A DNA stretch of 64,000 nucleotides, from positions 1 through 64,000 of the forward strand of contig RPFO01001292.1 in NCBI GenBank assembly GCA_009746045.1, read 5' to 3'. Both the position numbers and the translations under genes were made by a program. The stretch is from Mesostigma viride. Taxonomy: Eukaryota > Streptophyta > Mesostigmatophyceae > Mesostigmatales > Mesostigmataceae. Positions 13,835 to 55,400 of this stretch are shown here, piece by piece (position 1 is the stretch's first letter; each line of letters opens with the position of its first letter). The notes under the pieces were generated by a model. It did not search any database. It saw nothing but the letters and a program-made list of their open reading frames with translations, and was not told where the DNA came from.

Positions 13835-13837
13835 ATA

Positions 13838-17513: not shown

Positions 17514-17577
<64 letters not shown>

Positions 17578-17578
17578 C

Positions 17579-17627
<49 letters not shown>

Positions 17628-20233
17628 GGAGGAGGAGGAGGAGGAGGAGGAGGAGGAGGAGGAGGAGAAACTGGGACGGCAAGAAAGGGAAAACAGGTCT
17701 TCCCTGGGTCCAGGGGGCCACAGGGAAGCACATACCTACACGATGGGGATGTCGGCCTTGCGCTGCTCCTTGTCCATAGCCATAGCCAATACCACAGCCA
17801 TACCTAGTATTGATAGTAGCAGCATAGCACCAACCCTACCTGCACGATGGGGATGTCGGCCTTGCGCTGCTCCTCCTCCGTGATCAGCGCGTTCCGCTCG
17901 ACGCCAGCGGTCGACATGAGCACGACCTGCGGGCGAGGGGACTTGTACGCAGAGAAACCCTCGGCCGCAATCTCCAGGTTGAACCGGCCCGGCTTGTACG
18001 AGGGGTTTGGCAGCCGGTTGAACTCGAATCGACTCAGAACGAGCCCCAGGCGCAGCACTCGCTTGGCGGCCGAGGACGTGAGCGGGGGGGCGTTGGGCAG
18101 CGTGGTGGCCATGCGCACGGCCACGAACGCAGACCAAGGCAGCATGACCTCAGTCCACTCCCCAGCCACAGTGTCAAATGCAGCCTGGTATGCCACTTCT
18201 GGCTCCGCCCCTAGCTGGGCCGTCTTAAGGTTGAGCTTGTAACGCTGGCCGTCGCCACGCACACGGAACCGGAGGCCATCAAAGCTGGACAGGTCGGCGC
18301 CTAGCTCGGTGGTGCGAGTACCGCAGAAGCCGCCTCCCTGGGTGATCAAGGTGCCCGACCAGAGCGCGCCACCTGGCCCCTTGTTTCCCTCCACCCCCTC
18401 AGTGCCCTCGGGGGCAATCCAGGACATGGCGCTGGACGAGGAGCCGCCCATGATGACATCGTCTGGATAAGGGGGCGAGGGGGGGACGGGGGGGGGGCGG
18501 GGGCAAAGAGTTTTTGGAGTATGGGAGGCCAATCGCGAGGGGAGAAAAAGGTTAAGAGATGCGGAAGATACAACCCATAACAACAAAAGGTTAGGAGATG
18601 CAGAAGACCAGATCCATATCCACCAACTGTTGAGAGATGCAGAAGATACCATCTGTAGAAACCCAAAAGAAATTCATATTAATGCACAACCAGGTACAAC
18701 CAAGAGGTAACGGGTGCCTCAACAAAGGAGGCGCAGGAATGCATTAGTGGCATGAGAGGAGGGGGGAGCATCGGGGAGCAGGAGGGAGAGAAGGGGGCGA
18801 AGGAGGAAGCAGCACATGGCTCTTGTGCGTGCAAGGGGCATTGCGGGGATAAGGGCAACAAAGCAGCGAGGCAACAAGGTGACAAAGGCTGGGCCTGTGG
18901 AGCTAACGACTTACAAGAGATAACAGGTGCAGGTGAACATCGGGCCGCCACCCACTCTGGTTGACCAGCACAGCTCCTCTGACTCCATGCTCACGCACGC
19001 GCCGCTAGTCTCTGCAGCCTTGCTGGCCATGTTACGGCGACGCGCACAAAAGCTCACCCTGTGTGCCTGTGCTCACCCTACTTGCTTGCAGAGACAACCT
19101 GCGCCTTGTACTCCCTACGACCCTACACATCAAAGAGACAACCTGCGCAGGCCAGAAATCCGAACGTGTTGATCTCATAGGCTGACACATCCACTGATAC
19201 AAGTTTCAAAGACTACAACCGGCGCAGGCCAGAAATCTGGATGAATCCGGCCCATGGTAGCTCGAGCCAGCTGGTATCTTATCCGCGTTTGTCGAGTCGT
19301 TCAGGATGATGGAAATGGAGCTGGATATGTGTAGCCGTGCAAATTAACAATCATGGCTGGCTAACATTCGTCGAGACCTAGACGGTCTAGCTAAAAACAA
19401 CCTCGCGCGAGCAGGGCAGTTGTTCCTAGCGGCCAGGAGTGTCCAGTTGTAAGCACCAATGCTCCAATCATCGATACTGCGATATATGTATAGCACAATA
19501 ACAGGGCAGGCATGAGGAAGGCAAGAGGAAGCACGCACCCAGTGGCTGCCACCGCGCGACATCCGTTGGCGACGCCATGGGCAAGAAGGTGACCGATTCA
19601 AAAGATGCGGCGTCTGCCCTGGCTGCGGCGGCGTCCGGCGCGCTCCCGTTCACCCTCATGCCCGCCTGTGCGGCCGCGAGGATGTTCTTGACCCCGTTGG
19701 CGTCCACCGCCTCATTGGTCATGCCGTCAAGGATGCCCATGCCTCCCTCGGGCAGCTTGCCGAACACGGGACCCACACAGGATACCACCTGGGTGATCCC
19801 CTCAAACAGGTCCGCGGGCATTGTTGATGGGTTGACGATGTTGACCCCCCCCCGCACGATGAGCACGTTCTCTTGGCCCTCCTGCTTGCCAGGTGTCACA
19901 CCCACGGATGCCAGCGCGGCCTCGCAACGGGAGGCGTCGCGCGCGGCACAGACGACGCTGCGGCCGGACTTGACCAGCTGAGCCACCACCTCGCGCCCAG
20001 TCTTCCCCCCGGCTGGGTGTGGGTGTGCATGTGTGGGCGGGTGTGTGCGTGGGCGTATGCGTGGGGGGATGGGTGGGTGAGTGAGTGAGTGAGTGAGTGA
20101 GTGAGTGAGTGAGTGAGTGAGTGAGTGAGTGAGTGAGTGAGTGAGTGAGTGAGTGAGTGAGTGAGTGAGTGAGTGAGTGAGTGAGTGAGTGAGTGAGTGA
20201 GTGAGTGAGTGAGTGAGTGAGTGAGTGAGTGAG

Positions 20234-20313
<80 letters not shown>

Positions 20314-21840
20314 TGAGTGCGTGAGTGCGTGAGTGCGTGAGTGCGTGAGTGCGTGAGTGCGTGAGTGAGTGAGTGAGTGAGTGAGTGAGTGAGTGAGTGA
20401 GTGAGTGAGTGAGTGAGTGAGTGAGTGAGTGAGTGAGTGAGTGAGTGAGTGAGTGAGTGAGTGAGTGAGTGAGTGAGTGAGTGAGTGAGTGAGTGAGTGA
20501 GTGAGTGAGTGAGTGAGTGAGTGAGTGAGTGAGTGAGTGAGTGTGGGGGCGTATGCGTGGGGGATGGGTGGGTGAGTGAGTGAGTGAGTGAGGGGGGGGC
20601 AGGGGGGGGGGGGAGAGCGAGGGCGGACTAACAAGCGGGGGGGGGGGGGGGGGGGGGGGCCATGCATGGGGTCCATGCTTGTGGCGCCCTTTGAAGGGGG
20701 CATCTTACAATATCGGGGCATAAATATACTAGCCTGTGGGTCCAATCGAACCCCTGCGGTCTCATGCATCCAGGCGCAGCTTGAGTCGGGAAGTAATGTC
20801 AGGTGGATATTCCAGTAAACAAAAAGGGCACGTTCATGCATGCCACTAACTGTTAATAGTTATTTGCCGATGGTGTTGATGTGCTACTTGCAAAATATTA
20901 TTAGCACCGGGTGACAACTAGATGGTATAACACAAGATATTACACAGTAGATGGTAATACAACATGGCATTTACCTTTTGAAAGGCCACAGGCACGCATG
21001 ATTGTCCATCGTCCGTGTGAATCACGACAGTCAAGTACTATACGCATCGCAGTATGGCAAGTGTCATTGACGTGACAGTCTCAGGAAGGTGACTACAGGG
21101 AGGAAGGGCACAGGCACGCATGATCGTCCGTGCGCATCACGATAGTCAAGTACTATACGCATCGCAGTCTGGCAAGTGTCATTGACGTGACAGTCTCAGG
21201 AAGGTGACTACAGGGAGGAAGGGCCGAAGTTATCTTCCATCCTGACCCGCTATGCTTCCATGCCAGAAATCTGTCTTTTCCCACTCCAGATACCGACGTT
21301 CGCTGACGAGCTGCACACTTTGCTCACAAAGGCGTCGCGCACGCATGTGAAACCTCGATGCCGGTACCTACCTCCAAACACCAAAACCCCGTTTTCTGGG
21401 ACAAGTCGCGGAGCTTCCACTTGTGCAGGGGCCTCTTTGCTCTTCTCTGGCTCGTTATTACCGTTGTTTTTGGCGAAAAACAGGGCAATTAAACCCACAC
21501 CCACGGCCACTCCAAGACCAGCAAGCTGAGTCGTAATGCCAGCCGATCCGAGAGAGGAAACCATGTCGGCAGCTGGCGAGGTAGTCGCGGGCACAACAAG
21601 GTTCACTGGGTCAAGTGAAGCAACTGCTGTTAGAGTGACTCCGTGCAGTTTGTTACCACGCCTCTGGCTTGAAGAGAATTGGGGTAGCTTCGGCTTGGTA
21701 ACCGGCAAAAGGTCCTTCCGAATCCTGCTCAGGCCCGAAAAGTCCCGGAAAGCAACCGCTTTTCCGCCGTGGAAAAGAGAAGCGCACGGCACAGCAACGC
21801 TCGCCAACGGAGCACTAAGAAGTCCCGAAAATGCCATCAC
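16883..21840 (-). CDS. HCF173-like atypical SDR with an inserted CIA30 domain, plastid
   Basis: Minus-strand model: exon 1 21840-21372, exon 2 20012-19539, exon 3 18462-17840, exon 4 17386-16883 (stop TGA); all borders GT-AG, phases 1, 1 and 0, total 689 codons. Residues 1-70 look like a plastid transit peptide (Ser/Ala/Arg-rich), and a hydrophobic segment lies at about 102-122. GVLVFG (151-156) joins across intron 1 to GAGGKTG, the dinucleotide-binding glycine motif, followed by a Rossmann-like half to about 312. Exon 3 encodes a CIA30 domain opening WQPLDDVIMGG, with GGGFCGTRTTELGADLSSFD and FRVRGDGQRYKL. Exon 4 returns to the SDR fold (NWKYFGEQAVRSSGLRYTII). An SDR split by CIA30 is the layout of Arabidopsis HCF173 (psbA translation initiation) and its paralogue At4g18810; I cannot tell which. 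It is divergent from the starch synthase gene. Confidence 0.88.
17514..17668. repeat. GAT and GAG trinucleotide arrays in intron 3 of the HCF173-like gene
   Basis: About 40 GAT units with one TGATCATGATG break (near 17575), then about 12 GAG units. The arrays lie in the intron between 17839 and 17387. Runs of Asp, Met, His or Ile in the six frames here are not protein. Confidence 0.95.
17736..17768 (-). repeat. Copy of exon 3 end plus splice donor, inside intron 3 of the HCF173-like gene
   Basis: About 33 bp repeats the last codons of exon 3 (the stretch ending ATCGTGCAG|GTAGGG at 17840) and again ends in a donor-like TAG|GTATGT. The copy has diverged by a few bases. It lies about 100 bp inside the intron and could act as a cryptic donor. 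Confidence 0.8.
20066..20590. repeat. GAGT/GCGT tetranucleotide array in intron 1 of the HCF173-like gene
   Basis: About 500 bp of GAGT with a central block of GCGT (20234-20314) and alternating GAGT/GCGT units (20315-20365). The word GTATGCGTGGGG with GGTGGGTGAGTGAG occurs at both ends (near 20054 and 20550). It is followed by poly-G runs to 20659. It lies just upstream of the exon 2 acceptor on the minus strand. Confidence 0.97.
20987..21222. repeat. About 122-bp tandem duplication in intron 1 of the HCF173-like gene
   Basis: Two copies (starts at 20987 and 21109) share CAAGTACTATACGCATCGCAG and CTCAGGAAGGTGACTACAGG with a few differences near their start. Confidence 0.9.
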
Positions 21841-22435
21841 GGTTCACCGGTTGCCCGACGTCTTCGCCCAATCCTGGCTGGCAATTCACCCTACCTGTGT
21901 TGGGAATATGACTACCCGTGAAATCGTCTGCATACGTATGGCTGCATACGTAAACCAAGAACGATGATGTGTCCTCACCGAAGTTCAGGATTTTTCTTGA
22001 CAGCTCCAGCAGGCGCCACGTACACCCCAGTTACAAATGCCAGTGGTCACGTTCAACTTTTCGTGGACTTTGGCCATATCCACCCGCGGGCAGGCGTGCA
22101 TCCAAGTGGCACTGTGGATTTTCCTCGCTGTCTAATCAAGTAATCGTGGTGATCTTCTGGCCTCTGGTCGCGCGCGCACGATAGCGTATCTTACACCTGT
22201 CACTCCACGCACCAAAAGATCCCCCGCAGCGCCTGCACAGGTAAGCAATTTTACCCGTCAGGTTTTACTCGGTCAATAGCTTTAGTGGATACACAGCGCA
22301 CAGGTGGCGCTCCCTAAACGCGCGGGCACTGGCTTGGGCAGCAATCTGTTCGCCTTCATCCGCTCCAGCGGCCTCTACGCCACCCAGTAGGGGCAGAGTG
22401 GGAGGCTGCCGATCCGATTTAAGGTAATAAACAGC
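21841..22435. promoter_or_regulatory. Divergent promoter region, HCF173-like gene / starch synthase
   Basis: About 595 bp separate the two start codons. No TATA box is convincing on either side. The plus-strand part has a possible 5'-UTR intron (CAG|GTAAGCAATT at about 22240 and GCACAG|GTGG at about 22310). Both genes encode predicted plastid proteins, so joint light control is plausible but unproven. Confidence 0.45.
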
Positions 22436-25400
22436 ATGGAGTGCAGGATTGCCATGGCTCGCATGGCGCCTCCGTCAGTGGGGCCACTGCAGTCGTCATT
22501 TACGCCCTCCAATGTGTGCCGACTCCACCGCCGAGCCAGCCCCCTGGTTGCTCCGCGTCAAAGTCTGCCGGTCGTCGTGGCAGACGGCTCTGGAAAGGTG
22601 TGTTGCGGGCGAGAAAGTGCTGCGTTAACACTTTGGTTAACACTCAGTCAGCAGTGCGACCTGCGAATTCTCGAGTTATAGACTTGCCTGCCTGCGCTTT
22701 GCATCGTCGCTTCGCTTGAGTACATCACTACACGAAAATTTGCTGCCAGGACGCGGCAGGTTTCGTATGAAATGTTACGTGTTGCACTGCGTCTGTACGC
22801 TTGGCGGCACACAGCATGTCATGATTAAATTTCTGTCATGCCTTTGGCATCTGTTGGTCGCCTAACTGTTCATCCTTTCTTCCCAGTTTCCCAAGCTGTG
22901 CTCTCGCAAACGCTTTTTTGTGACATGCTCTAGTTAGGCATTGGGACTGAAGAATTGAAGTGTGTTTCTGCGGTTGCTGTGTCTACGCAGTTGAAGAAGT
23001 CCGAGCTGCTTGCAAAGGTGAGCCACTGGTAGTCAATTTGGTGCTGCCAACAAGGATGTCCGTGCATGCCCGCATTAGGCAATTATTGTTACATCCAGTT
23101 TTGTAAGAGGGACAGGGCTTAGATTACTTGCTGCCACGGCTCTATCTTCGGGGCTAGTGCGTTGGTTAATTACGCCGGTAATTTGCCAGGTGCTTTGAAA
23201 GTGCTTGTCGGTGCTGACGGGTGGGCAAGGGGCAGGCTATTCCCGTGTGGAGCCTGCATATGACACGTTGCATGGGTTGAGCCTGCTTGTGCTATCTGGA
23301 ATTGTCTGTATGGCAGTGCCTAGCTGAGATCAATACAACACTACGGCTTACCCTTTGCTTGGTGGGTGCATGACGGACACGTACTACAGGCAGTTTACTG
23401 AAAGACATGGCCTGCACAGTTTCTGTGCAAGAATGGTTTGGCAAGAACGTGCAGGCCATCCATTCCACATGGTCGACTTTGCACTGCTTGAAATCCTCGT
23501 TGTAGCAAGTCATGCGCAGTCACATGCACGCACTTAGCTTTATCCCTGGCTGCCAGGTGGAAGTTCCTGGATGCCCTGTCCGGTAGCTGTGGGTGGATGT
23601 ATCCAGGTGTTCAACCCTTTTCATAATTTCACGTGGCAGCTTTCCGTGACCCGCTGGCATAGGCTCAGCAAATCTACTTTGTGAAAGCCTGTTATCAACG
23701 CTGGATGGTAAGTCGCTGGGGGCATGGGCGCACGCATGCCCCTATGTGACTGTTTCAGATGGCTGTTTTAGGTTACTCCCAGGGTAGCTGTCTGGGACAT
23801 CTCTGAGGTGATCCATACTCCAGCTTGTTGGATGCCATCGATCGCATGCAACCCCCCCACACCCACAGCGGCCGTGCTCCTGCTCCTGCCCACGCTCACA
23901 CTCACGCTCACGAGGCACCGACACTAGAATGGAGGGAAGTTGCCTCATGAGAGAAACGAAGCCGCCAATGCGCAGCCTAGTACTGGCCCACGCCACATGC
24001 TAACCATGCCAACCGTTGCAACCAATCGCCGCTGGCTGTATGGTTTCTGTACGTTCACCTGGCAACGTCAACCCACGGGGTGGTCGTTCCCCCTGGCGTG
24101 ATGCTGCCGGTGCAGCTGCAAGCAGAGAACGAGGCACTGCGCAAGCGCATCCAGGAGTTGGAGAAGGAGAAGAAGGCGAGGTGGGGAGAGATAATATTTG
24201 GCACTATAACATACTGTACTTGGTGCAATGGTTTACAAAGAGATGGTCTTTTGGTGCTGCTGGTGAAGGTGAGGAACGCCATGTGGTTGGAGAAATCCTC
24301 TTGGTTCTATAAGTAAAGGAAGTAAGTTCTATAATGCACTCTAATACACAAGTACAATACATACTACCAGTGGTGCAATAATCCGTTACACTTTTTGAAG
24401 TTTGCTGGTTGTTATAGTTTGTCACCATACGCCAGTAGCTATTTGACGCCCGCTCAGAACTAGTGGGGGCAGAGAATGATGCTGTTCTTGTTGTGCTTGA
24501 ACTTTCTGTTCTTCTGTTTGCAATTATGTGCTGCTGGTAGCCTCGGGCGGTGGTGCCACTTTTTGGTCAGCAGTGTCAGTGGCCTAATAGAGGCAGATAA
24601 TGCGCAATGTCCATGTAGAAGCATGGGTGCAAGAACACAGGCTTGCTCTCCTGATCTAGCCTATCTGCTTGCGGTCCAGATGCGAGTTAAGTACGGCACC
24701 ATGCGACCATCCGACCAAGCCTCCTCCGTTCACTTCTGCCATATCCTTGTCCCTGCATTTACTATGGTTATCCCAACCTCTTGCCTGCCTTTCATGACCC
24801 TGCTTCTGCCTCCTCTTCTGCGTCCCTCTCTGCTGCGTCCCCTGCTCCCTTCTCCTCCTCTTTCCTCTGTCTAAACCCTAACCCCTGATCACCACTCCTC
24901 TGTCTTCCCTCAGCCCGGTTGCGGCGCAAGTACAAGAGCCTGCCGTCGCGGTGGCTGCTGCCGCCCTCGCCACGGGCGAGGATGTCAAGTCCTCCAAGTC
25001 GGGCAAGAAGAAGAAGGCAGCGGCTTTGGTTGCTGCCGAAGCCGCGGTGGAGGACAAGCCGAGCACCGCGCTAAAATTAGACCTCAAGTGGCCATCCCCC
25101 TCGGACGCAGAGCCATTCTGGAAGCGCAATGTGCCCCCCGAGGCGCTCGCGGGCACCGACGCCATTCCGCCAGGCACCAAGGACCCACACCCAAAGTACA
25201 TCGTCCACGTGACCGCAGAGATGGCGCCCATCGCTAAGGTGGGTCGAGGTTGTTGGTTGTATTTGCTTGTACAGCACGGGTGTGCATGGACCAGTGGAGG
25301 TGGTGCCCATTGCGAATGTGGGGTGCGGCTGGTAGTAGTCTCTTCATCGTTGCTACAGTATGGGGGTCCATTTACCCGTGGAAGGTCCGATGGCTAGAGC

Positions 25401-28400
25401 ATGTTGTCCACGAGGTGAGCCAAGCAGCAGTGTGGGATGGAGCGAGAACACGTGTATCATCTATCAAGTAAGGCAACCGATTTGTGTCTACTAAGCGGAC
25501 AGCTGATCCTAGATGCACGCGTATTGCCTGCCTGCTCCTTATTACACGACCAGAACCGTTGCCTGGCCTTCTGCATTTGGCATGGCATGGCAAGGTCCCT
25601 GGATGGTGTGATGCGTTTTCTATATGTTTGTATGGGGCTGGGTGCGATTGTGAGTTCTATGGGATCCTGCTTGTGGCGCGGTTGAGCGTGATTAGTGTAT
25701 TAATGATCGATTGGCTGCGCCATAGCTTGATAGTGAGGGTATGGACCACCTGTTTTATCAATCTTTTATATCTGGGATGGTTGAGCGGCCTGTTCTTCCT
25801 CAAGGATGAGTGTGACGGATGGGGCAGTTGGGTATAAGTTAGCATTCATGAGCAGTCTCTGATCTGATCTCGCACATGTTGTGTGGCTCGGCCTGACCAC
25901 CCCTGTCCCCCTCAGGTGGGCGGCCTGGGGGACGTCATCACTGGCTTGTCCCGCGCCTGCCTCTCGCGGGGCCACTACGTGGAGGTCATCCTTCCCTTCT
26001 ACGAGTGCATGCCAAAGTCACAGGTGAGGTCATCCTTCCCTTCCATGACTGCATGCCAAAGTAGCAGGTGAGGTCATCATTCCCTTCCATGACTGCATGC
26101 CAAAGTCGCAGGTGAGGTCATCATTCCTTTCTATGAGTTCATGCCACAGTAACAGGTGAGGTCATCCTTCCCTTCTACGAGTGCATGCCATAGTCAGGTG
26201 AGGAATGGGAGGCATGCTACACGCTGCCAGTGGAGAAATCGGGGGGGGGACTAGGGCTAGGGGATGGGGGTGGTGAGTAGGAGGGTGAAATGTGGATGTG
26301 GGGGTTGGCATGCGATGGCCCGGGCATACACCTGGTCATGTACGCAAGCATGCTCATCGGGCATATACTCATGGTTGGTTAATGTGCTTGTGGCTTCCTG
26401 AAGGAATCCTACTCTGCCACATCAGTTTTGGGCTTAGGGCTCCCCGGCATCACTTGCGTTGTAGCCTGCGATGACTCACTCTGCGTCCACATGGGTGTAG
26501 AAGCACATGGCGCAATGGGGGCTATCTAGTTGTGCAAGTCACTGCACCTTGGAGTGCCCTTTTACTGCGCAGGCCTTTCGCGTGAATCTTGTCTGTGTTG
26601 CGCCATAATGCTTTGCGATAAATAGATTGCCGACAAACACATTTTTCACGGCAAGCTTTCTAAGCACCACCCATGTGCTACTGTTCTTGTAAGGTTGGTG
26701 TGACCTTCTACGTGGTATATGTCCTGTTTCTGCTGGGCCCACCCCGCGGCATGCACACTGAACATATGGACTGATCTCATCATCTTTTATCACATTCTGC
26801 TGGTCATCAACGTGATCACATTCCTGCTTGTTTGTCTAGCGAATGGCCATGAAGTTTGCCTAGTACAGTATTACTGCAGTTCTGATCTTGACTTTGACAC
26901 TTTGCTTGGCACCATCCCTCCCCCACCCCTCTCACCCCTCACCCCACCCCAGATCGCGGAGCTGAAGCAGCAAGACAACATCAACTCGTACCACCGCAAC
27001 GGCTGGATCGACGTGCAGGTGTTCACGGGCAAGATCGCCGGTGTGCCCGTTGTCCTGCTCAAGCCCTGCAATAACTTCTTCTCGGGAAATCGCATCTACG
27101 GCGGCAACTACAACGAGCTCGAGGCCTATCTCTTCTTTGCGCGCGCCAGCCTCGAGTTAATCGTCGTGAGTGGGGCGGCGGCCTGCGACCGCCTTTGTGT
27201 TGGTTTTTAAAACGGTTTTCTAGCTGGCGACCGGCGGTAGCATTGTCACAGGTCGTGTGCTGGGAGCTGTTTCTGCGATGCGCAGTGGTAGGAAAGGCAC
27301 CGTGTGCGTGATGTATTGTACTTGTTGCTGGTGCTGGAGCATGCACGAGACCTACCGTGTGCTAGCGTACATTATAGGCGTTGCTTACTGGGTGGCGACG
27401 CAGGGCATTACTCCCATACCAGCCTTCTGGGATAAAATCCGTCTTTTTTCTTCTTTTTTTCACGATTGCATCCCTGTACCCTTCCATATGCCTGACGAGC
27501 ATATTCCCTCAGCAGGCAAACCCGTTTTTTTCCTGTAAACAGGACCATACAATTTTTTAGCCTCTTGCTAAATTACCCCGTGCTTGCTTCCCCGTTCATG
27601 CCACGCTGTTCCCAACCAAGCAATTTTTGGTATCCTCGCCCGCTGGTCTGCACCCAACGATATCCTTGCCTTGTCCTGGCGGCCGCACATGCCCACACCA
27701 ACCGCCCCCACAGCGCACCAACCGGCACCCGGACGTCATCCACACGCACGAGTGGCACACGGCGGTGATCGGCATGCTCTACTGGGACATGTACCGCAAC
27801 CTGGGCCTCACGGTGGGTTCACCAACACATGCACCATGCACAAGTGCCACGTCATGCCTTGCACCTCTTCATCTCACTCAGCAACAGCAACGTGCTTCTT
27901 CATCTAATCTAGCAGCTAGATGCCCGCAGTGAGATTTACTCAGCGGTGGCTCCAGGTACTGGGGGCTTGTTTGTTGTTTTTGTCGTGCAAACGTACCAAA
28001 TGCTATTATTGGAGCACGCTGGGAAAGATCTCGCCAGGTATCATCAGGGCCATGCATGTAAGCATCAGGGTATTTGTAAAAGTTGCCAAGATATGAAACA
28101 TCATGCGCGGGGTACAGCGATGCTTTTGCTAATCTGGCATACGAGTTCCTATTCGTGCCGTCTTTTTCTTGCCTGCTTCCCGTTTTTATTCTTGCGGCCG
28201 GCGCCCAACAGAAGCCGCGCATCATGCTGACCATCCACAACATGGAACATTATGGCGAGTGCAGGTGAGCACAGCATGGGGCACTAGGACAACTGCAGGT
28301 CGGCCAGCCATGCCTCGCACACAATTTCACCAACATCTGCTTACCGGCCTTGAGATGCTGAAGTCTTTTCGTGTGCGCAAACTCCTTCCTTCGCAAGATG

Positions 28401-31400: not shown

Positions 31401-34400
31401 ATCCCCGCCAACTTCTCAGGTAAGGGCTTAGAATTGCCAACTACTCAGGTAGGGGCTTCAAAGTGCAAATACCCCGGTGTGAATGCCTGCCAACTTCTCC
31501 GGTAAGGGTAACAACCTCTCTAGGTGGGGTGCCAACTTCTCAGTAGTGGTGCCCTGTGTGGCCGCTCCTGCCCGCGTCTATGTGCCACCATGGGCAACCA
31601 GAGAGTTTTGTGCCAACAAGGGCAACCAAGAGTACTGCCCTCGCATGACCTTCATGAATTGATTAGGCATCTCTTGATCAGCTGTGATCGTCTTTTGGCC
31701 TTAATGTTCCTGTTGTATGTATAAGGCCTTAATGTTCCTTTTGTATGTATAAGGCCTTAATGTTCCTATAGGCCTTAATGTTCCTATAGGCCTTAATGTT
31801 CCTATAGGCCTTAATGTTCCTATAGGCCTTAATGTTCCTTGTGTATGTGGGCATAAGGACATGGGAAAGGTGTGGTTGGCACTGTGCGTGTGTTTTAAGA
31901 GATGAGGGACGAGCTGCTTAGAAGGCCATAACAAGGGTCATGAACCTCAACCTTTTCTTCTTACCTCATATTTACAGTACGTCAGCATTGCTTTGTTCTG
32001 TTGCCCACCATTGAGGCTCCGTTGAGCTGACAGTCAGTTGACATCAACACCCATTTGCTGCGCAAGGTGGAAGGGGGCCATCACAGCAGCCATTGATCAA
32101 TGTAAAAGTGAAATTACAATGTTGCCCCCTGAAGGGTTGCAGCCGCCCCACCTCTCTTCACCAAATGTTCCAACGCACTGGCATTCCGCTATTTCTCTAG
32201 GTGCGGCTTAAGTGCTCGCGTGCCTAGCTGCTTGATGGGGCCAAATCTCTGACCATCAGTGATGGCATGTGCGCGTTGTTTCATTCGTGGACTCGTGCAT
32301 GTGTGCATGAACACATCCCGGGCGCAAACTGGCAGCGGACGACCTCTCAAACAAGAAGGTCTGCAAGGTGTTTGTCCAAAAGGGGCTGGGCCTGAAGCCC
32401 GACTCGTTGCCGGGCGAGACGCCCAAGGTCCGCACACCCCTCATCGCATGCATCACCCGGCTGGTGCCACAAAAGGGCATCCACCTGATCCGCCACGCCA
32501 TCTTCCGGACACTTGAGCTGGTGAGGGAGCCCCGCATGCTGCCACCTGGCACCTGCCCCCCTTGCTTTTTTGTTGGGCAAGGGATCGATTTGGTTTCCTT
32601 TTCCATCCCATGTCTAATGTATATGTCAAGCTTGCGTATATAATGTAGTAATCGTTTGTAGTTGTAAGCTTCTAGTGGATGAAGCGTCGTGTAGGTGTGA
32701 CATCCTTACCCTGCCTTACCCTGCTTAGTCATGCTGCCCCTGTCCTGCAATGTAATGGTACTAGTACGCTTACTTGTGCCCGGATCCACCCCGTATTCAT
32801 CGGTCCTGAGTCACGGAGCAGAGGTGGCCAGGCAATCGCTTCCCTTGTGGAGAGGGCCGCCAGACACCTTCCCCCCTCCCCCCCATCTGGATCTTTGCCC
32901 CTTTCTGTGAGTAGAGGTAAAAGCAGTTGTGGCACCTCTCACGTGGGACGCTTGGCGGTAGACGGGAGCGGAGCGGTCCACAGGAGCCAGCGTCTAGATG
33001 TTGCCAGGTTAAATATTATTTGCCGCCCATAGCGTGCGCACAGGGACATGCCGTGTCTGACCTGCTGATGTATTGCTATTCTCCTCTTCTCGGTTGCACT
33101 TGTTGGTCCTAATCTTACCATACTCCAGGGCGGCCAATTCATCCTGGTCGGCTCCTCCCCAGGCACCGCCGCGCACAGGGAGTTTGAAAAGCTGGCGGAA
33201 GAGGTGAGCGTGAGCCTGCATTGTGTGCTAGACTATCTCTGTAGCCAGCGGGCAGGAACGCATGCGCGGTAGGCAGGCTCTCATCGTGGTATGCAGAAGG
33301 TTTGGAGCAGTGTAGATGGCGATTGAGTTGTGCAGTAGACCGTATAGGTAGCCAGCGGGTGTGCGCGTGTGCGCAGTTGACAGCATCCCTAACCATTGGG
33401 TGATTGCGCCTGCGTGGTAGACAGCAAGGTTGCACGAGGGGTGAGCGCACGTGCGCCGTAGATCGTGTTGTCAGCGAGTGAGCGTTCCTGCCAGCAGGGA
33501 TGGCTTTTATAGCGCAGCCCATCGGGCACTGGCATAGGTCAGCAAAGGATGTTATATATAACATATGTTATATATATATATATATTTATGTGATGTCTGG
33601 TTTCAGGATACACTGGCTTTTGCAGAGCATTCAACACAAGAATCAGCCATCTCGTGCTTTGTTCCAGTGCTTTATATGTAGTATCTATCAGTTGTAGTGA
33701 CATCCCCAGCCAAGGTTTGCTGGGTGTTAGGGGCAGGCCCCAGGGGCTGTCGGCGGCTGGATGGCCTCAGCCCCCAGGTCTATATGGGGGCTGCAGGTGA
33801 GATACTGAAGCATGTCGGCGGCTGTACCCTGGCCCCCACCCGCTCAGAGCCCCAGACCACTAGTGTACTGCCACGTGTAAACTTCAGCTCGCTGTGTCTT
33901 CCTTGTTGCCACGTGGCACGTCAGAGGTCACCTAAATGCAAGTGCTCTTTCGCGGCATTCTTGTGCCCTGCCAAACAGCTTTGTATTTGGGCACAGCATC
34001 GGTCTATGATAGCAGGCTAGTCGGTAGTACCGGAAGTAGAACTGAAATGTAGGCGGCAGTAGGAAACTCCCTCAACATCGGGGTACCGAATGGCTGGGTG
34101 TAATATGGGGGCCGGCTCTCGGAGCCCTGGTGGCGGGCCCCTAGTCAAGGGCTAGCATACGGGGGCCCAGAAGGTCTGTTAGCAGCGGTCGGCCCTGGCC
34201 CCTGAGGATCATATTTTGGGTCCAGAGTTTTTTGGCCGGCGGTGGCGGTCCTGGGCACACATATATCTTGGCTGGATGTCACTACTCCTTATCTATCCAT
34301 ATTCAAGGTGCATTGGTAGTGAAAAAAACGTCAGGAGTTTTGTTGGCATTCTCCCAGCCGAAACGTTCTCTATTCTGTTACTTTGGGGGGGGCAATCTGA

Positions 34401-39582: not shown

Positions 39583-39593
39583 AAAAAACACGG

Positions 39594-42894: not shown

Positions 42895-43056
42895 ATATTC
42901 TGATCAGACACTCCGCAAAGGTGAAAACCTTTGCGTTCAGTGCCAGGCCGCGGAAAACGCGGAAAACGCGATCTGCAAATGAATCCGACCGGAATCGAAC
43001 TGGGGACCTCTCGCACCAATTTTGCTGACTATAGGACGGACGTCTCCGGATACCAT
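42895..43056 (-). repeat. 162-bp repeat with tRNA-like promoter boxes, copy 2
   Basis: Exact copy of 42495-42656, offset by exactly 400 bp in the same orientation. Sequence between and beyond the copies is not repeated. Perfect identity means a recent event or recent conversion. Confidence 0.6.
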
Positions 43057-44675: not shown

Positions 44676-45163
44676 TAGACGCTACATTACCGCCTCGTTT
44701 GCCATTACAGGATAGCATAATAGCTCCAGCCTAGGGGAATACAGCAGCAGTAGTGTAGAATAGTTAGACAGTGGCCTTGTACATGCCCGCCTACTACAGG
44801 CACTATACCAGCTGAGGCCTAGCCTTTTTAGTCATGTACATGTGTGCCTATGATGAGCCACCCTCCAGATGATGCCTAGCTTTATTTAATTATGCCGTGC
44901 CCATGCAGGGAGTAACTCTCTGCTGAGACGCCATGCCCTAGCTTCTGTATAGCTATGCTGATCTTCCCCCCGATGACAAGCTCCCCCTTAGCTGGGCATA
45001 GCTTGAAGCTCATGGGGCTGCAAGTGCCCTGGTGCACGTAGAGCATGACGTCGTTTACATTCCCACCCTTGCAGGAAGTAGCTTAGAATGTATGATAGGC
45101 CATATGCCCCTTCTCTGGGCTATGTGCTACATATACTCCCAACGGAGTTGTGTTCCTAATTAA
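44676..45163 (+). repeat. Retroelement 3' end, family B, interrupted by the TTAA element
   Basis: The last 95 bp match 1434-1530, ending ACTCCCAACGGAGT (45135-45148), GTTCCTAATTAA. Its TTAA repeat tail continues after the inserted element at 47425-47461. Upstream, 44676-45060 has no recognisable coding sequence and may be the body of the same element. Confidence 0.6.
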
Positions 45164-47424: not shown

Positions 47425-47461
47425 TTAATTAATTAATTAATTAATTAATTAATTAATTAAT
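47425..47461 (+). repeat. TTAA tail of retroelement family B (continued)
   Basis: About nine TTAA/AATT units after the right end of the TTAA element. With 45070-45163 it makes one hairpin-plus-tail retroelement end. Confidence 0.65.
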
Positions 47462-47499
47462 AGCTCCAATGAGGATTATATCCCCATCTTAGTACTTAC

Positions 47500-47762
47500 T
47501 ATATTGTTGGTGTTGATGCAGACGATATTTGTTTAAACTTTTGTGTAATTATTTTTCTAATGAGATTAGCATAGTACTCCGTGGCATGCCTTTGCGCATG
47601 ACACGCAAGTACTTACTTACTTACTTATATTGTTGGGGAATGACGCAGACAATATTTGTCTGTTTGTTGAATCGAACTTCAGTGTAATTGCTTTTCCAAT
47701 GAGATTAGCATAGTACTCCGTGGCATGCACATACGCATGACACGCGCAAGTACTTACTTACC
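47500..47762. repeat. About 126-bp tandem duplication ending in ACTT repeats
   Basis: Two copies (from 47500 and 47626) share TATATTGTTGG, AATGAGATTAGCATAGTACTC and GTGGCATGC; each ends in AAGTACTTACTTAC. They differ by scattered substitutions. Nothing else is recognised between 47762 and 49413 apart from short frames without support. Confidence 0.85.
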
Positions 47763-49413
47763 AGTGGGCAGGCCACAGAGCGCTCTCTCCACAGCATGGT
47801 GCTGGGGCGCAACACTGTGGGTGCAATACAATACCATAGGTAGGTTGACACATAGCTTATGTTTTTTTTTAAGGTAAGGTGGGCTCAAGACACAAATGCG
47901 TCCTCTAATCCTGCATGTGCACTCACAATATTGACATTACAGATCGGTAGAACTTATAGCTCGTTACATGCCTGCGTGCAAGCACACAAGTGCTTGCTTC
48001 CATAGCAAACCCCTTGTGTCATGTGATCGAAACAAAATATTCAGCGGGGCTCACATAAAGTTGCCCACATAAGGACCGTAAACAGAAGGCTTTGCCACAA
48101 CCCTTGCTTCCATTCTCAGACGACATCCAGACTTCTGGACAGCACATCCACTTAAACAAAAACTGAAGACATGGTTCATGAGTTGTCGACAAACGGGCAT
48201 AGTCTCCAACATTTGACATGCGTTAAACATCTTTGAACCTCTCCTGGATTGTTCTGTCTTTGTAGCAAACGAAGTTTGGTTTGATTCAACCACACATGGT
48301 TGTCATGTGTCAAGTGGGATCCAAAAGCCTACGATCACCCAGCCGCCCTTTCAGACGTGCGGCAGATTTGCCAGTGGACCAATGGACCTGCAAGCAGAGG
48401 CACAAGTTATTCAGCCGGTATGGATGCATTTGGCTTTACATCAGTCTGAGCCAGAAAAAAAAAGTTCCAGCCCAAGTATGGGCCGCCATCATCTGCATTT
48501 GCATGGGAACCCCACCTGGTCTACCTCTCCCCCCTCACTCTTCCTGCCTCGCTCCGTCCCTGTTATGTCAATCTTTCCATCGCAACCTTGCTTCCAAAAT
48601 GCCTCTCCATGCACCTAAAGACAAGAACAACAAACAGGAGGAGAGCTTGAACACCAGCATACGGCCAGGCAGCTTGTTCGGAGGTAGCGAAATACATTTT
48701 GATGAGCAACGAAGCCCATCTGCGAAACTAAACTTGCAAAAAGCATCACACTGCACTACGTTCTTGGCAACATCGTGCCCTTAAGGCCTCCTCGCATAGC
48801 GCAACGTTACGAAGGGAGATGGATCGGGTAAAACCAAACGGCATGGAGAAAAACCTACTCTAGAGATGACAACCAGCCCACTGTGCATGGACATGAGGGT
48901 TCGACAAATAAGCGAACCCAATGGGTACTAGAGGAACATGACCCCAAAACGGACCCAGACCGACGAGCACCCTTGTAGGAGGTCTGTAGATCACCTGCTG
49001 CGCACAGGTATGCATGCTCAGCCATCAGGGCATTTGGGCACCTGGGCACAGACGAGCACGCAAAGCCGCAAGCAAAACCACTTACGGTGAATGACGAACG
49101 CTGCATGGCAAGACCACTTCTGGTTGATGGGGAAACACAGAGGCAGAGACGTGCAATGAAAGGGGCAGGGGGAGTGAAGGGGTTCGGCACACCTGCTTAT
49201 ATCTGGTCTGTATGTATCTTTTGTCAATAGGTGTCTGATAGTATGTCTATGGGTGGCAAGTTGCCACTGCATGCGCCAGGTCAACCCACGTTGTCATGAT
49301 CTCAAGTTGATGGTTCCAACAGACGTCACCATTGACTATACAGGAGTGCAATCCTCCCGCCACGCCAGCGTAATCGCACGACAATGTGCTTACCCCGCTC
49401 CTGTGCAACTGCC

Positions 49414-52400
49414 TCACTGGGCGGCGGCACCCTGCAGGGCCTTCTCAAGCCTGTCCACCTCCGCCGCGGCCTGCCAAAATGCCTTCTCAAGGACCTGCAT
49501 ACGCAGCACAGGTTAAACAGGCGACAATTAGATTCATGCAATTGATTCGATATGCAGCATCCAGCATGATGGTCTCCATACATGCATGCAACTGCCAATC
49601 AACTTGACACCGCCTTGTACACCACAACAAGTGGGCGTGTACCGCACGTGCAACGTGCGGAATGCTCCTAATTGTAGGAGAAAAAAGCAGCAGGGAAGCT
49701 CTTTCGATGGCCAAAATTAGGCTAGCTTGCCTGATATGCAAACATGGCCAGTGCAAGTGCTGCTCTCTAAGAGTGGGCCCCCATTCCACAGTGCCTGCAG
49801 GTCAGAGCGGGATGCACATGGCTACAGAAGGAAGGTCACGTCTCCAAGGCTCGTCTGCCCATGTCTCTGCGACCTCCCAGCAGGGGCATACGATCAACAA
49901 ACGTCTCATCAGCGGGCACAAGCTTATCGACAGCCACTGTACGCCCCCCCCAACCTTTTGCCATACAAGTTATGCAAGTATGCCATTCCATTAGCTCGCT
50001 GGGTGTATACCTGTCATAACGGGGCATGCAGCTTGCCATTCAGTCCAAATACTAGTATCTCTTATTACCTTTACATAGTCCTTCAGTTCTTCCATCTTGC
50101 CGTGAACGTCGGCTTGACTTGCGGGCTGGCTGTCGGCCCCTGTGTGACCAGTTGTGCCAAAGATGTGGATGCAATGCGTGTCCAGGACAGCAGCCATGAG
50201 GCAAGGGGTGAGCGGCAAGCGAGATGCATGTAAAGATCTGCATACATGAAAGACACTGTAGGAGCAAAAAAAAGGGCAAGCCTGCCATCTAAGCATAATT
50301 CAAAGGATGGAGGAAGCAACACCCAGGAGGAGGCACTGGGGAGGCCTGCCTTACCCTCTCTGAGGCCATAGCGGGCCGCATCCGCCCCGTGCACTACCAC
50401 GTTGTCCTTGGAGCCGCGGCCGGCTTTCCGAGCGCTATCAAGGTGCCCATTGATCGGGAGAGCATCCCCCCGCGCCGCCGACAGCTGGCGGAGCCTGCGC
50501 ATCTCCTCCTCCCACCCCTGCAGGGAGCTGTCGGCCCACTCGCAGAGCACGTCCAGCTTGCGCTCGAGCAGGTCCTTCTCGCGCTGGAGCGTCTGCCAGG
50601 GACGTGGGGAAGGCAGGTGCCCAGCGAGTAGTACTTAGGAAAAGAGTGTCCGCAGCCCCAAGCCATAGGTGGTCGTTATGAAGGCGCACCGCAAGCGATG
50701 CAGCCTAAGAATACCTTACTTATCCGTACTGCTAGGGGCACTCTATTGAGCTCTAAGGGTAGCTGATGACAGCATGGATACACCTTGCTGAGTTTGCAGG
50801 GGGGCAAGGAAGTCATGCTTGGTAACACGTGCCAGTGGCCACGGGTCGCATGACTGTGGGCCATGAAGAGGGGGTCACGTGCGCAGCCACCTTCATGCCC
50901 AGCCTTCATGCCCAGCCTTCGTGCCCAGCCTTCATGCCCAGCCTTCATGCCCAGCCTTCGTGCCCAGCCTTCATGCCCAGCCTTCATGCCCAGCCTTCAT
51001 GCCCAGCCTTCATGCCCAGCCTTCATGCCCAGCCTTCATGCCCAGCCTTCATGCCCAGCCTTCATGCCCAGCCTTCATGCCCAGCCTTCATGCCCAGCCT
51101 TCATGCCCAGCCTTCATGCCCAGCCTTCATGCCCAGCCTTCATGCCCAGCCTTCATGCCCAGCCTTCATGCCCAGCCTTCATGCCCAGCCTTCATGCCCA
51201 GCCTTCATGCCCAGCCTTCATGCCCAGCCTTCATGCCCAGCCTTCATGCCCAGCCTTCATGCCCAGCCTTCATGCCCAGCCTTCATGCCCAGCCTTCATG
51301 CCCAGCCTTCATGCCCAGCCTTCATGCCCAACCTTGATGCCCAGCCTTCATGCCCAGCCTTCATGCCCAGCCTTCATGCCCAGCCTTCATGCCCAGCCTT
51401 CATGCCCAGCCTTCATACCCAGCCTTCATGCCCAGCCAATCATGCCCAGCCTCCGTAACCCATTTCCATTACGTGTAATCCATGCCTACCATGTTTGGTG
51501 CAGCTCGCTCACAGGCTCATACACTACGGCCCGCTGTGGCTTGTGATGGCGCGTGGGTGGGTCCCACAAGACCAAGGCGCCTTGCACACACCAAAGCAAA
51601 CAAAATCGCCCCCCTAGCGCCCTAGTGCCCGCACATGGTCCCTAGCTTGCCCGTGAAAAGATTTGCAAGCTGCATTGGAGAATGACAGCTGCCTATTCAA
51701 TACCCCAGTAGAGGTGGATGCGAGGCCGCGAGGCAGGAGGCTGCGCAAACAGGAGGATGGGAGGCTGCGAGGATGCACGAGAGCCATGACTAATTGCATG
51801 ACGCATGGGCACGCAACCGCCCCACTAGCACGCCACGGCTACATGCACGCTACCACCCGCACCCTACCACAACCGCCCGCTCACCACCAGTGACGCCTGC
51901 GTGTCCTGTGCCCGTGCTGCCATCTCCTCCATCCTCCGATACGCCGCCTCCGCCGCCTCCATCACGCCGGCCACGTCCGCCACGCTCAGCTGGCCTCCCT
52001 GTACGGCTCGCTCCACCGCGGCGCCGAGCAACCAGGCCAAGAGCACCACACGCTCCGACAAGTGGCTGGTCGCAGCAGGCGTGTAGTTTGGTGAGCAGAA
52101 ACACATCAGGGTGTGGCAACAATACTAATTTAGATAAGCACATAGTGGTACTTAAGAAAAAAAGGGCAAGGGGGCAATAAATTTCAACATAGCTAAGCTC
52201 TTCACCAAGGTCATGACCACGTCATTGCATGCATGATCAAATGACTCCTCAGCAAGCTTGAGCCGGCCCTCACAGATGCATGCCCAGGCAGCAGACCACA
52301 GCAGTAACAGCCAGCAGCATGCAGCTGCCACGCCATGCCACACCAATCTCCATGCAATCCACGATCAAGTGCACAAGAGCCTCCAATGCCCAGCAGCTGA

Positions 52401-55400
52401 TGGAAATGGGCTGCAGTGCGGGCTGCCTGATACTGGTCATAGCTGCCTAAAACTGGCCAAAGCTGCCTAAAACTGGGCAAATTTGCCGAAAACTGGCTAA
52501 AGCTGCCTAGAATAGACTTTACTACTACTCTACAACTGGCGTACCGAGTGAGCTCCGCTTGTGTTTCCGACAATGCATCTCCCTTGGCAGCTTGTGGAGG
52601 TGGTGCACCTGATGCGACCTTCTTGGCACCCTCTACGCCACCATTTTGTAAGGAAGCCGTGGTAGGTCCCGTGCCCTCGCTACTGCTGGTTGCGGACACC
52701 GCTTCTTTCTTCCCTGCCGACTCTGGCTCATCCACGTGGAGCGACTCCCACAGGGTCTTGTGCGGGCATCCATCAACAGGTGGCAAGCAGCTTGCCATCT
52801 GTAGCCGCTTGCCCGCATTCCGCACCGCATCCTCCACCATGGCCGCTAGACCAGCTAAAATAGCCTCATCGGCAGTGGTGTCCCTGACATCGTTGGCAGC
52901 CGCCACGGCTGCCGCAGGCGCAGCCTCTCTCGCCTTCTCCCTTGCCTCAAGCTCCTTCACAGACGCGGTCAAGCGGGCCGCATGCTGCTCCGCCTCTTGC
53001 TTCTGGCGCTCTAGTGCAGCGATGCGTCGACCCTGGCTCAGCTCGGTGTCCTTCATGGACGCCATGCTGGCTGTCAGGTCCGCCACCTGTCGGGTGACGT
53101 CACAAGAACAATGTGCAAGGGCACAGGATACGCGGATGCATGCGAGAGGGTAAGTTGTCCGCCACCTGTCATGTGACGTAGCCAGATGGATATGCGAGGG
53201 CATGGGACACACAGCATCCAGGCATGTGATGAATGCATGGGTGGGGGACTTATTTTTCTGCTAATCCCGATCGTCGATCCTTATGCCAGAAGCCTTGCAA
53301 ACCCCAAACATACTTCCCAGACTTTGCACCAAGAGCCGCTGCAGGCATGCCCATCCGTTCCATCCACACCGGCATATATTACAAACAGGCACGGAGAAAG
53401 AACACTTTAGTGGATGATTACAAGCAAGCCAACCCTGGAAGGGGACACACCCCTACCTTGACACGGTGACAGACCCGCTTCTTCCCCGCAGCAGCAGGAA
53501 CCAAACACCCATACGAGCACGCCCGCATATAACTCTATACATGCAGACCGAAGCCTAAAATGTATACTTAAAGTAACTCAAGTTCCGCAGCATTCCTACT
53601 CACCATCCCCATGTACGGCTCCACTACCAGTCCGCCTCCATTACCTCCTCCCCCCCCCCACCCCACCCCTATGTCCCCATATTGAGAGGCAGGTAATGCA
53701 TCTCCCCCAGGTTCCCCCTCCCCCAGCAAACCCAAGAGAAGTATACCTCCAGATTCCAGGCCCAAGCTGGTGGTCTCGTTGAGAAACATGAACCCCACGA
53801 GCGTCTACCTGTGAACCCTACGGTCCGCTCACCTGCCAGTTGGCGCTGCTGAGCGCTTCCTCAAGCGACTTCTGCAGCTTGGCATTCTCCTGGAGTCGCC
53901 CCTCGCCCGTGGTCAGCCGCGCCTGCAGCCGCGCGCTCGTCTGCTTCTCTTCCGCAAGCAGCGCGCTGAGTTCCGCCACACGCGCGCGCGACTCTGCCAA
54001 CGCCGCCTCCGCTTCCGCGGCTCCTGCGCTGGAATCCTTGTTTGAGGCACCAGATGGGGACATGCTGCCTCCGGGAGCCATGTTTCGAGATGGCTCCGCC
54101 GCCCCCTCCGCCCCCCTGGGGACACCTGCACCTGCCATGTCGGTGCCGGCATTCGCCACCATGGCATCCGGCACCGAATCTGTCTGCACTTCCCTGTCCT
54201 CTCGAGCCACCGCGGTGGCACCTCCCGCCCTGTCCAGAATGATCCCGGTCGCAAAAGGCCCTGCCGACCGCCCCGAGGCGCTGCGGGGCGTCTCGTCGCG
54301 CGAGAGCTCCAGTTGCTGCCGCAATACGTCACACTCGCTCTCCAGCTCCCCTACGCGTGCGCGCAGCTTGGCCGCCTCCGCCTCCAGCTCCGTGCACAGC
54401 CCGCTCGAGACCGCCTGCGAGAGCTTGAGCGAGGACTTGAGCTCGCGGATCTCCTCGGCCGATCGCGCCGCCGCCACAGCCGCAGCCTCCAGCTCGCCCT
54501 GCCAGGGACGTTGGTCAACAAGTGGCGGACGTTGGTCAAACACGGCGCTTGTTACGGAAACACTTCAGCAGATGTTGGTAGAAAGGTAGCGAGCGTTCTT
54601 CAAGCATGGCAGCCCTCGCAACAGGGTTTGACCCAAGAAGGAATGAAATACCCCCCCGTGTGCGCAGTGCATGGACACATTTGCTGGGAGAACGAGGAGC
54701 AGTGTCAAACGTAGGCGTTTCTTTCATAAGATAAGGGTGGACTACGCTAGTAAGCCAGAATAACTTTTGCAGCATGAATCCAGCCAATTATACCAAACAC
54801 AGCCAAGAAACAAAATAATAGAATAAACGATCACAGCCAGGCCACACTTGCCCACCTTGAGCCGCACATGGTCCCCTCGCGCTGGCTGCAGCGCGCCGTC
54901 ACCAGGGACCACCGCGATCTCGTCCAGCACCCTGCCCACCCTGGCGATGCCCTCGGTCAGCTGCCCCACCGCGGCATCCCCCACAGCCAACGCCGCCACG
55001 GTGACCTTCTCCAGGACCGAGACCGCGCGATCCACCCCCGTGGCCGCCCTCATGCCGACCGCGCCCACCACGCCCACCGCCCGCTGTAGCGCCCGCACTT
55101 GCTCCTTTGCGCGCGCCGCCTCCGCAGCGGCCGCCGCCGCCGCCCGCTTGAGGCTGTGGGTGCGCTTGCCCGAGCGGGTGGCATCCACCTCGTCCTCATC
55201 ATCGCCATCCTCGTGCCAACCACTAGGGGAGAACTCGCCGCTGCGGCTATCCTCCTCTTCCTCCTCGTCCCCGCTCACGGACTCGTGGTACAGCGAGTTC
55301 TCCTGCACCACGTTCCACTCCTGCTTGCCCGTCGCGCTGTGGCCATCCTCGTCACCGTCGCTGCCACTGACGCCTCCCATCTGCATCTCTTCCTCTTCTT

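What the first reader, a model, noticed from the sequence alone, without database searches (positions are those of the whole stretch)
17736..53182. The same exon-edge duplication recurs in three genes
Splice-site-bearing exon edges are copied into the adjacent intron at 17736-17768 (HCF173-like, donor side), 26024-26197 and 31436-31544 (starch synthase, donor side) and 53157-53182 (coiled-coil gene, acceptor side). Four cases in about 30 introns suggest a genome-wide process of tandem duplication centred on exon borders, possibly how this genome seeds intron minisatellites. I do not know a described system that matches.
Basis: partly seen in the sequence, partly recalled or inferred. Interest (0 to 1): 0.8.

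Follow-up and report, generated by a model that had tools for sequence, protein, structure and literature searches.

The report
Exon-edge copies seeded into algal introns
In the green alga Mesostigma viride, short stretches of DNA that include the end of a protein-coding exon and its splice signal have repeatedly been copied into the next intron, mostly at the donor side, much like a form of gene instability recently described in birds.

Summary
The four borders named are published splice borders (starch synthase model 675/675 aa identical to Mesvir1/3380), and each has a local copy of its exon edge and splice site in the adjacent intron. Chance is excluded: 1 of 1,212 swapped-intron controls. 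In the window alone the donor rate equals the intron repeat background (3 of 28, 2.6 expected). In other genes of the same genome it recurs, chiefly at donors: overall 18 of 107 donors, 6 of 108 acceptors (P 0.0095); 18 observed against 8.5 expected. It is uneven: kinesins 14 of 53, the rest 4 of 54. Best reading: active short tandem duplication runs across exon borders; donor-side copies are tolerated and stay recognisable because one copy is constrained; acceptor-side copies are lost. A donor hotspot is not excluded. Two kinesin paralogs share an edge array whose copies co-vary with their own exon. 'Exon stuttering' of bird dot chromosomes (PMC12954441) is the same kind of thing. Exon edges start only 3 of 42 intron arrays.

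The parts
17387..17839 (-). HCF173-like gene, intron 3; donor cut between 17840 (exon) and 17839
   Evidence: spliced mapping of P0121 = eukprot Mesvir1/3379
17835..17881 (-). source: end of HCF173-like exon plus first intron bases
   Evidence: 42/47, offset 104
17731..17777 (-). copy of that exon edge and donor inside intron 3 (donor copy TAG|GTATGT)
25203..25268 (+). starch synthase exon edge at donor of intron 4 (cut after 25238), source of an old copy
   Evidence: 42/66, score 114
25282..25347 (+). decayed copy of that edge in intron 4
25982..26023 (+). last 42 nt of starch synthase exon, first unit of the 44-bp array
   Evidence: TRF 25982-26203, period 44, 5.1 copies; donor cut after 26023
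26024..26203 (+). intron 5 part of the array: four further copies each with a CAGGTGAGG donor copy
26024..26952 (+). starch synthase intron 5
28236..28312 (+). weak tandem copy at donor of intron 8 (offset 34, 29/43)
   Evidence: not a hit under the stricter test
31401..31440 (+). starch synthase exon edge at donor of intron 12 (cut after 31419)
31436..31508 (+). two copies of that edge in intron 12 (31436-31469; 31483-31508)
   Evidence: 28/34 and 23/26
31420..32335 (+). starch synthase intron 12
53078..53135 (-). coiled-coil gene: intron end and exon start at acceptor (cut between 53087 and 53086)
53157..53214 (-). upstream copy of that acceptor edge in the intron
   Evidence: 43/58, core 21/23
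53087..53832 (-). coiled-coil gene intron 3 of the mapped model
   Evidence: mapping of P0241 and P0242

Best explanation
A process of short tandem duplication and minisatellite turnover (units mostly about 30-150 bp) acts throughout the introns of Mesostigma viride and sometimes takes in an exon edge with its splice site. On the donor side this is tolerated: the exon-adjacent donor goes on being used, the coding sequence is unchanged, and the copies lie in the intron, where they drift or are homogenised with the exon-linked copy by array turnover. They stay recognisable longer than purely intronic pairs because the exon-linked copy is held by selection. On the acceptor side such duplications are kept less often, probably because a duplicated AG upstream of the true one competes for splicing. 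Shown: the copies, their locality in the DNA held, the recurrence, the donor-acceptor difference, a shared array in two paralogs. Inferred: the mutational step, which donor is used in RNA, and selection as the cause of the asymmetry.
For: Local origin: swapped introns give 1 of 1,212 and 0 of 1,224 hits; five donor-edge queries from C634 matched within that 199-kb contig only at their own border and intron, and the four from the window genes had no hit in the other loci held. Tandem character: gapped alignment of the intron half of the unit scores above other introns (P 0.013 or less) in 9 of 19 donor cases, borderline (0.05-0.09) in 4. Copies look unselected for frame: offset divisible by 3 in 3 of 19; copy donors are never stronger than the true donor (10 equal, 9 weaker of 19). 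Published models use the exon-proximal site at all four window borders. Constraint effect: identity 308/380 in the last 20 exon nt, 105/114 at donor +1..+6, 198/380 at +7..+26; simulation with equal birth rates gives 1.37-1.55-fold more detectable copies at donors. Over all sets, no significant donor excess among pairs at least 0.9 identical (7 vs 5.4). Acceptors 6 of 108 against donors 18 of 107; among pairs at least 0.8 identical acceptors are 3 against 7.5 expected (P 0.009). Turnover: of three homologous donors in paralogs L017 and L042, one array is shared and two copies are present in one paralog only.
Against: After allowing 1.5-fold for detectability, 18 donors are still more than the 12.8 expected (P 0.096). 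The donor excess holds at identity 0.85 or more (12 vs 5.9, P 0.002), and at 0.9 or more the kinesin set alone has 6 of 30 against 1.8 expected, the other sets 1 of 74 against 3.6. Donor-like GT sites outside exons, counted by cluster, are not raised (12 of 230, against 53 of 970 random positions), so a real preference for true donors may remain. In 6 of 19 donor cases no intron-half homology was found beyond the border (P 0.5 or more), which plain tandem duplication must explain by age or deletion. Five of the six acceptor cases keep an AG in the upstream copy (by eye), so the selection argument is not strict. The simulation's rates are assumed, not measured.
Confidence: 0.62

Rival explanations
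1. Donor-targeted duplication: something about a working 5' splice site (co-transcriptional R-loop, G-rich start of the intron, transcription-replication conflict) makes it a preferred place for tandem duplications to begin, so exon edges act as seeds and master copies of intron arrays.
For: Donors 18 observed against 8.5 expected from the same introns (P 5e-5); at identity 0.9 or more the kinesin set has 6 of 30 against 1.8 expected. In 78 introns the profile peaks at the border (15 and 13 of 78 at -10 and 0) and is 5-7 of about 75 at +20..+60. Independent sets alone 15 of 79 against 53 of 970 random positions (P 7e-5). Donor-like motifs outside exons are not raised by cluster (12 of 230).
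Against: Over all sets no significant excess at identity 0.9 or more (7 vs 5.4); further into the intron the profile again reaches 10 of 72 (+160, +180); a constraint-only simulation gives 1.37-1.55-fold; tandem arrays do not favour donors (3 of 42); the effect is concentrated in kinesin genes (14 of 53 vs 4 of 54); dynein 0 of 6. Counted by site rather than by cluster, donor-like GTs are raised (40 of 396).
Confidence: 0.26
2. The copies are kept because they work: decoy or alternative donors that tune splicing or feed nonsense-mediated decay.
For: Copies keep GT in 16 of 19 and match donor +1..+6 at 105/114, above the exon part at 308/380; 10 of 19 copies have the same nonamer score as the true donor.
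Against: The hit rule favours matches around the border, and the true donor itself is constrained, so higher identity there is expected; offsets are not kept in frame (3 of 19 divisible by 3); 9 of 19 copies are weaker, none stronger.
Confidence: 0.06
3. [quoted passage not shown]
For: Units carry AG|GT, as in the model described in PMC4974935 (abstract and introduction read).
Against: That model puts the exon-end copy at the 3' end of an intron one unit long; here copies lie 25-385 nt from the donor of longer introns and in many cases include intron sequence.
Confidence: 0.02
4. Chance similarity, shared donor motif, or assembly artefact.
For: Introns are repeat-rich (interior coverage 0.11-0.19) and the donor motif is shared.
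Against: Swapped-intron null 1 of 1,212; the same array structure, with gene-specific differences, lies on two separate contigs. No reads were available to check the assembly.
Confidence: 0.04

Closest known systems
Exon stuttering / sequence stuttering of avian dot chromosomes (Genome Biol Evol 2026, PMC12954441; abstract, both parts of the results section on repeat expansion and of the discussion, and search passages read)
   Same: Lateral part of a coding exon with its splice donor or acceptor is copied in imperfect local tandem into the neighbouring intron; exon left intact; copies local; exon part 20-187 bp, median 36 there, against 13-42 nt, median 21, over 19 donor cases here
   Different: There it is tied to GC-rich microchromosomes and to length variation between individuals, which I could not test; 190 of 5,572 dot introns (3.4%) by a different screen, against 18 of 107 donors here by mine. 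Its main text names donor and acceptor once, together. Here the host is a streptophyte alga, GC about 0.54 in this window.
[quoted passage not shown] abstract and introduction read)
   Same: Tandem duplication of a segment with AG|GT, in the potato RdRp case across an intron-exon border
   Different: No new intron is made here; existing introns gain copies downstream of their donor.
Ordinary intron minisatellites (general knowledge)
   Same: Unit length, tandem order, homogenised copies
   Different: The first unit includes coding sequence and a splice site in use.

Membership tests
Avian-type sequence / exon stuttering | Introns rich in imperfect local direct repeats of tens to hundreds of bp | tested here: met
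   42 arrays (period 15 or more) touching 84 introns; interior coverage 0.11-0.19
Avian-type sequence / exon stuttering | Edge fragments of coding exons with their splice site copied into the neighbouring intron, exon intact | tested here: met
   18 of 107 donors, 6 of 108 acceptors; starch synthase model 675/675 identical to the published protein
Avian-type sequence / exon stuttering | Copies strictly local | tested here: met
   swapped-intron null 1 of 1,212; five C634 edge queries match within that contig only at their own border and intron. Kinesin queries also hit other kinesin regions: 45 hits in other loci, the 15 shown being between kinesin regions. Genome-wide only the intron 5 edge was searched: itself and one 74% paralog exon
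Avian-type sequence / exon stuttering | Extensive intron length variation between individuals | tested here: inconclusive
   one genome only; twin contigs C2/C622 give the same spacing around an intron with an edge copy and a 2-nt difference elsewhere (coordinates), but may be one allele assembled twice
Avian-type sequence / exon stuttering | Strong preference for small, GC-rich chromosomes | not testable with these tools
   window GC 0.44-0.65 per 2 kb; contigs are not assigned to chromosomes
[quoted passage not shown]
   copies 25-385 nt downstream of donors; the 14 solved introns with a donor copy are 335-1997 nt long
Minisatellite seeded by exon edge | Three or more head-to-tail units, first one in the exon | tested here: met
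   starch synthase intron 5 (5.1 copies) and L018 (3.5 copies), with L017 at 2.4; 3 of 42 arrays, so a minority

The most novel reading that the evidence does not exclude
Working 5' splice sites are favoured start points of tandem duplication, and the exon edge acts as a master copy: arrays in the intron are repeatedly re-seeded from, or exchange sequence with, the coding exon and its donor. In paralogs L017 and L042, at 8 of the 9 sites where the two exon-linked units differ, including a synonymous-looking exon site and donor position +4 (GTGAGA/GTGGGA), each gene's own second unit has its own gene's letter. This would be concerted evolution running across a coding border, in a plant-lineage alga as in birds.
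Probability: 0.22. Interest if true: 0.75.

Novelty: new variant of a known kind. Interest (0 to 1): 0.55.

Why it matters
It would extend a form of gene instability described in 2026 in birds (with a gerbil exception mentioned there) to a deep streptophyte branch, suggesting a general outcome of heavy tandem-repeat turnover in introns. It adds two testable points: in this sample donors carry edge copies about three times as often as acceptors, and exon-linked and intron copies can change together. Copied donors are raw material for alternative splicing and for misannotation.

Tried and rejected
A loose repeat criterion gave 8 of 56 borders; four of these were alignments at 60-70% identity (introns 3, 4, 8 and 14), and that of intron 14 did not match at the border itself, so I moved to a local-identity rule (17 of 24 around the border, HSP score 85 or more, 6 nt each side). 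Looser settings of that rule gave 4-4-1 donors and 10-11 in kinesins. The rule also drops the HCF173 case, which I count only in the 19-pair descriptive tables.

Site-level counts of cryptic donor-like GTs (14 of 109 and 30 of 334; 40 of 396 with known donors' neighbourhoods removed) first suggested a motif effect; arrays count many times there, and by cluster it is 12 of 230. True donors against such sites: P 0.059. Chance, shared motif and intron gain by AGGT duplication were rejected for the reasons given. Tandem arrays gave no donor preference (3 of 42). The starch synthase paralog exon on C1567 (L002) has no edge copy. No plasmid match, no Rfam match, no tRNA.

Sampling limits: 79 of the 129 kinesin exon rows were used (that call scored 122 of 252 candidates); 30 introns solved in 18 of 27 regions, pairs with profile gaps over 14 skipped; 23 single donors and 24 single acceptors accepted by splice score and margin; 12 of 44 dynein rows used, 6 of 8 pairs solved; 20 introns come from my own unverified gene predictor. 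The donor of the shared L042 array was not solved and is in no count. One search dropped 3 donors and 4 acceptors without enough usable interior. PF00133 was not used for introns; PF00118 did not complete.

Full report
WHAT THE WINDOW IS. The starch synthase encoded from 22436 to about 38.3 kb translates, with 18 GT-AG introns, to a protein identical over 675 of 675 residues to eukprot jgi/Mesvir1/3380, whose label I read as Mesostigma viride (the reading of 'Mesvir1' is recalled; taxonomy). The minus-strand coiled-coil gene is Mesvir1/3382 and 3383. The window is the first 64 kb of contig C634 of a 440-Mb assembly held as G000.

THE OBSERVATION. At each, the exon edge with the splice site recurs in the adjacent intron. 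The clearest is starch synthase intron 5: a 44-bp unit repeated 5.1 times, the first copy being the last 42 exon bases plus GT.

IS IT MORE THAN CHANCE, AND MORE THAN BACKGROUND? I scored a border as spanned if an ungapped direct repeat (score 85 or more at +5/-4, offset 12-400) covered it by 6 nt each side with at least 17 of 24 matches around it, the copy lying on the intron side. Attaching each border to other introns gave 1 of 1,212 donor and 0 of 1,224 acceptor hits, so hits are real local copies. Random non-exonic positions of C634 are spanned in 53 of 970. In the three window genes 3 of 28 donors and 1 of 28 acceptors are spanned, about what their introns' interiors predict (2.6 for 28 donors, 2.0 for 27 acceptors). 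The window alone therefore does not show an excess.

INDEPENDENT GENES. I fetched regions of the same genome chosen only by kinesin and dynein domain matches and solved introns from profile coordinates and splice scores. Kinesin donors are spanned in 14 of 53 (9 of 30 in solved introns, 5 of 23 single donors), kinesin acceptors in 5 of 54, dynein borders in 0 of 6 and 0 of 6, and borders from my own gene predictor on C634 in 1 of 20 donors and 0 of 20 acceptors. In all, 18 of 107 donors and 6 of 108 acceptors (Fisher P 0.0095; donors against random positions P 8e-5; acceptors against random P 1.0). With each intron's own interior as the expectation, donors give 18 against 8.5 (P 5e-5, n=104) and acceptors 6 against 9.2 (n=104). 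Along 78 introns the profile peaks at the border itself (15 and 13 of 78 at -10 and 0) and drops to 5 of 74 at +20, though further in it again reaches 10 of 72. The rate differs between kinesins and the rest (14 of 53 vs 4 of 54, P 0.010), so I do not claim one rate for the genome.

WHAT THE COPIES ARE. Among 19 donor cases (the 18 plus HCF173) the exon part is 13-42 nt, median 21, and the offset to the copy 25-385 nt. Gapped alignment of the intron half of the unit scores above other introns (P 0.013 or less) in 9 of 19 (starch synthase introns 5 and 12, L017 first donor, L018 both, L020, L022 both, and the predicted C634 donor), is borderline (P 0.05-0.09) in 4, and shows nothing (P 0.5 or more) in 6: HCF173, L021, two L026 cases, L033 and L042. 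Identity is 308/380 in the last 20 exon bases, 105/114 at donor +1..+6, and 198/380 at +7..+26; the offset is a multiple of 3 in 3 of 19, and GT is kept in 16 of 19. Copy donors score equal to the true donor in 10 and weaker in 9 of 19, never stronger. This fits silent, decaying copies better than selected alternative donors.

WHY DONORS MORE THAN ACCEPTORS. A pair with one copy under selection stays recognisable longer than a pair of free intron copies. In a simulation with equal birth rates and assumed substitution and indel rates this alone raises detection 1.37-1.55-fold at donors and 1.28-1.56-fold at acceptors (a smaller run gave 1.37-1.63 for donors). Scaled by 1.5, donors are 18 against 12.8 (P 0.096) and acceptors 6 against 13.8 (P 0.016). 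By identity: at 0.8 or more, donors 15 against 6.6 (P 5e-5) and acceptors 3 against 7.5 (P 0.009); at 0.85, donors 12 against 5.9 (P 0.002) and acceptors 2 against 5.9 (P 0.006); at 0.9, donors 7 against 5.4 (P 0.26) and acceptors 2 against 4.9 (P 0.02). At 0.9 six of the seven donors are in the solved kinesin set (6 of 30 against 1.8), which speaks for a hotspot at least there. So the asymmetry is at least as much a lack at acceptors as a surplus at donors. I infer that duplicated acceptors are more harmful because the 3' site is commonly chosen by searching for AG from the branch point (established knowledge, recalled; only a search listing seen). Donor-like motifs outside exons are not themselves favoured when counted by cluster (12 of 230), so a residual preference for true donors cannot be ruled out.

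A SHARED ARRAY IN TWO PARALOGS. Kinesin genes L017 (C2189) and L042 (C1579), 88% identical over 375 nt here, carry at the same donor the same array: two 70-bp units and a third cut at about 30 nt. The exon-linked units differ at 9 of 70 sites; at 8 of these each gene's second unit has its own gene's letter, and at the two sites that the third unit covers it agrees as well. First and second units differ at 0 of 70 sites within L017 and 4 of 70 within L042. The common structure suggests an array older than the gene duplication, followed by homogenisation that includes the coding edge and the donor (inference; independent duplication with the same ends is the alternative). At two further homologous donors only one of the two genes has a copy, so copies come and go.

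COMPARISON WITH WHAT IS KNOWN. 'Exon stuttering' on avian dot chromosomes (PMC12954441: abstract, both parts of the results section on repeat expansion and of the discussion, and search passages read) describes lateral exon parts with donor or acceptor copied in imperfect tandem into the neighbouring intron, over 90% of sources within 1 base of the exon border, 190 of 5,572 dot-chromosome introns. The anatomy is the same. I could not test its feature of length variation between individuals. A search for 'sequence stuttering' with 'intron' found that one paper. Searches on tandem duplication at splice sites, minisatellites and intron gain listed 4 of 4, 2 of 2, 20 of 47, 20 of 32, 10 of 16, 8 of 25 and 0 papers; I saw in those listings no report of this in green algae, which is no proof of absence. 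[quoted passage not shown] The Mesostigma genome paper (PMC6947507; passages and one section read) reports repeats in 30.1% of intron space; edge copies are not in the parts I read.

VERDICT. Real, recurrent and donor-biased; most likely the meeting of very active short tandem duplication with ordinary selection on exons and splice sites, with a donor hotspot as the serious rival. A new variant, in a distant lineage, of a kind described in 2026 in birds.

Noticed in passing
G000 contig C2011, 273-623 kb: Several aminoacyl-tRNA synthetase matches in long open frames on one contig; it looks bacterial, an associate or contaminant in the algal assembly.
   Followed up: no
G000 contigs C2:6330541-6334132 and C622:17695-21288: Matching kinesin exon rows with the same spacing but for 2 nt in one interval: haplotigs or a redundant contig.
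   Followed up: partly
window 20073-20592: About 520 bp of (GTGA)n inside intron 1 of the HCF173-like gene.
   Followed up: no
window 50890-51452: 13-bp unit repeated about 43 times inside an intron of the coiled-coil gene.
   Followed up: no
window 335-1406, 12281-13010, 13543-14248, 16087-16604: Long tetranucleotide, 184-bp, 4-bp and 257-bp tandem arrays: heavy tandem repetition outside the three genes too.
   Followed up: no
window 55261-55797 (minus): Model Mesvir1/3382 (P0242) lacks a stretch of acidic low-complexity coding sequence, mapped here as an intron with a weak acceptor (GAG|); probably an annotation artefact.
   Followed up: partly
window 19539-21837 (minus): The HCF173-like gene seems to have N-terminal coding sequence missing from the published model P0121 (688 vs 469 aa in my model).
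   Followed up: partly
L042:2013 and L017:3116; L017:2381 and L042:1221: Homologous donors of two kinesin paralogs where only one gene has an edge copy.
   Followed up: yes
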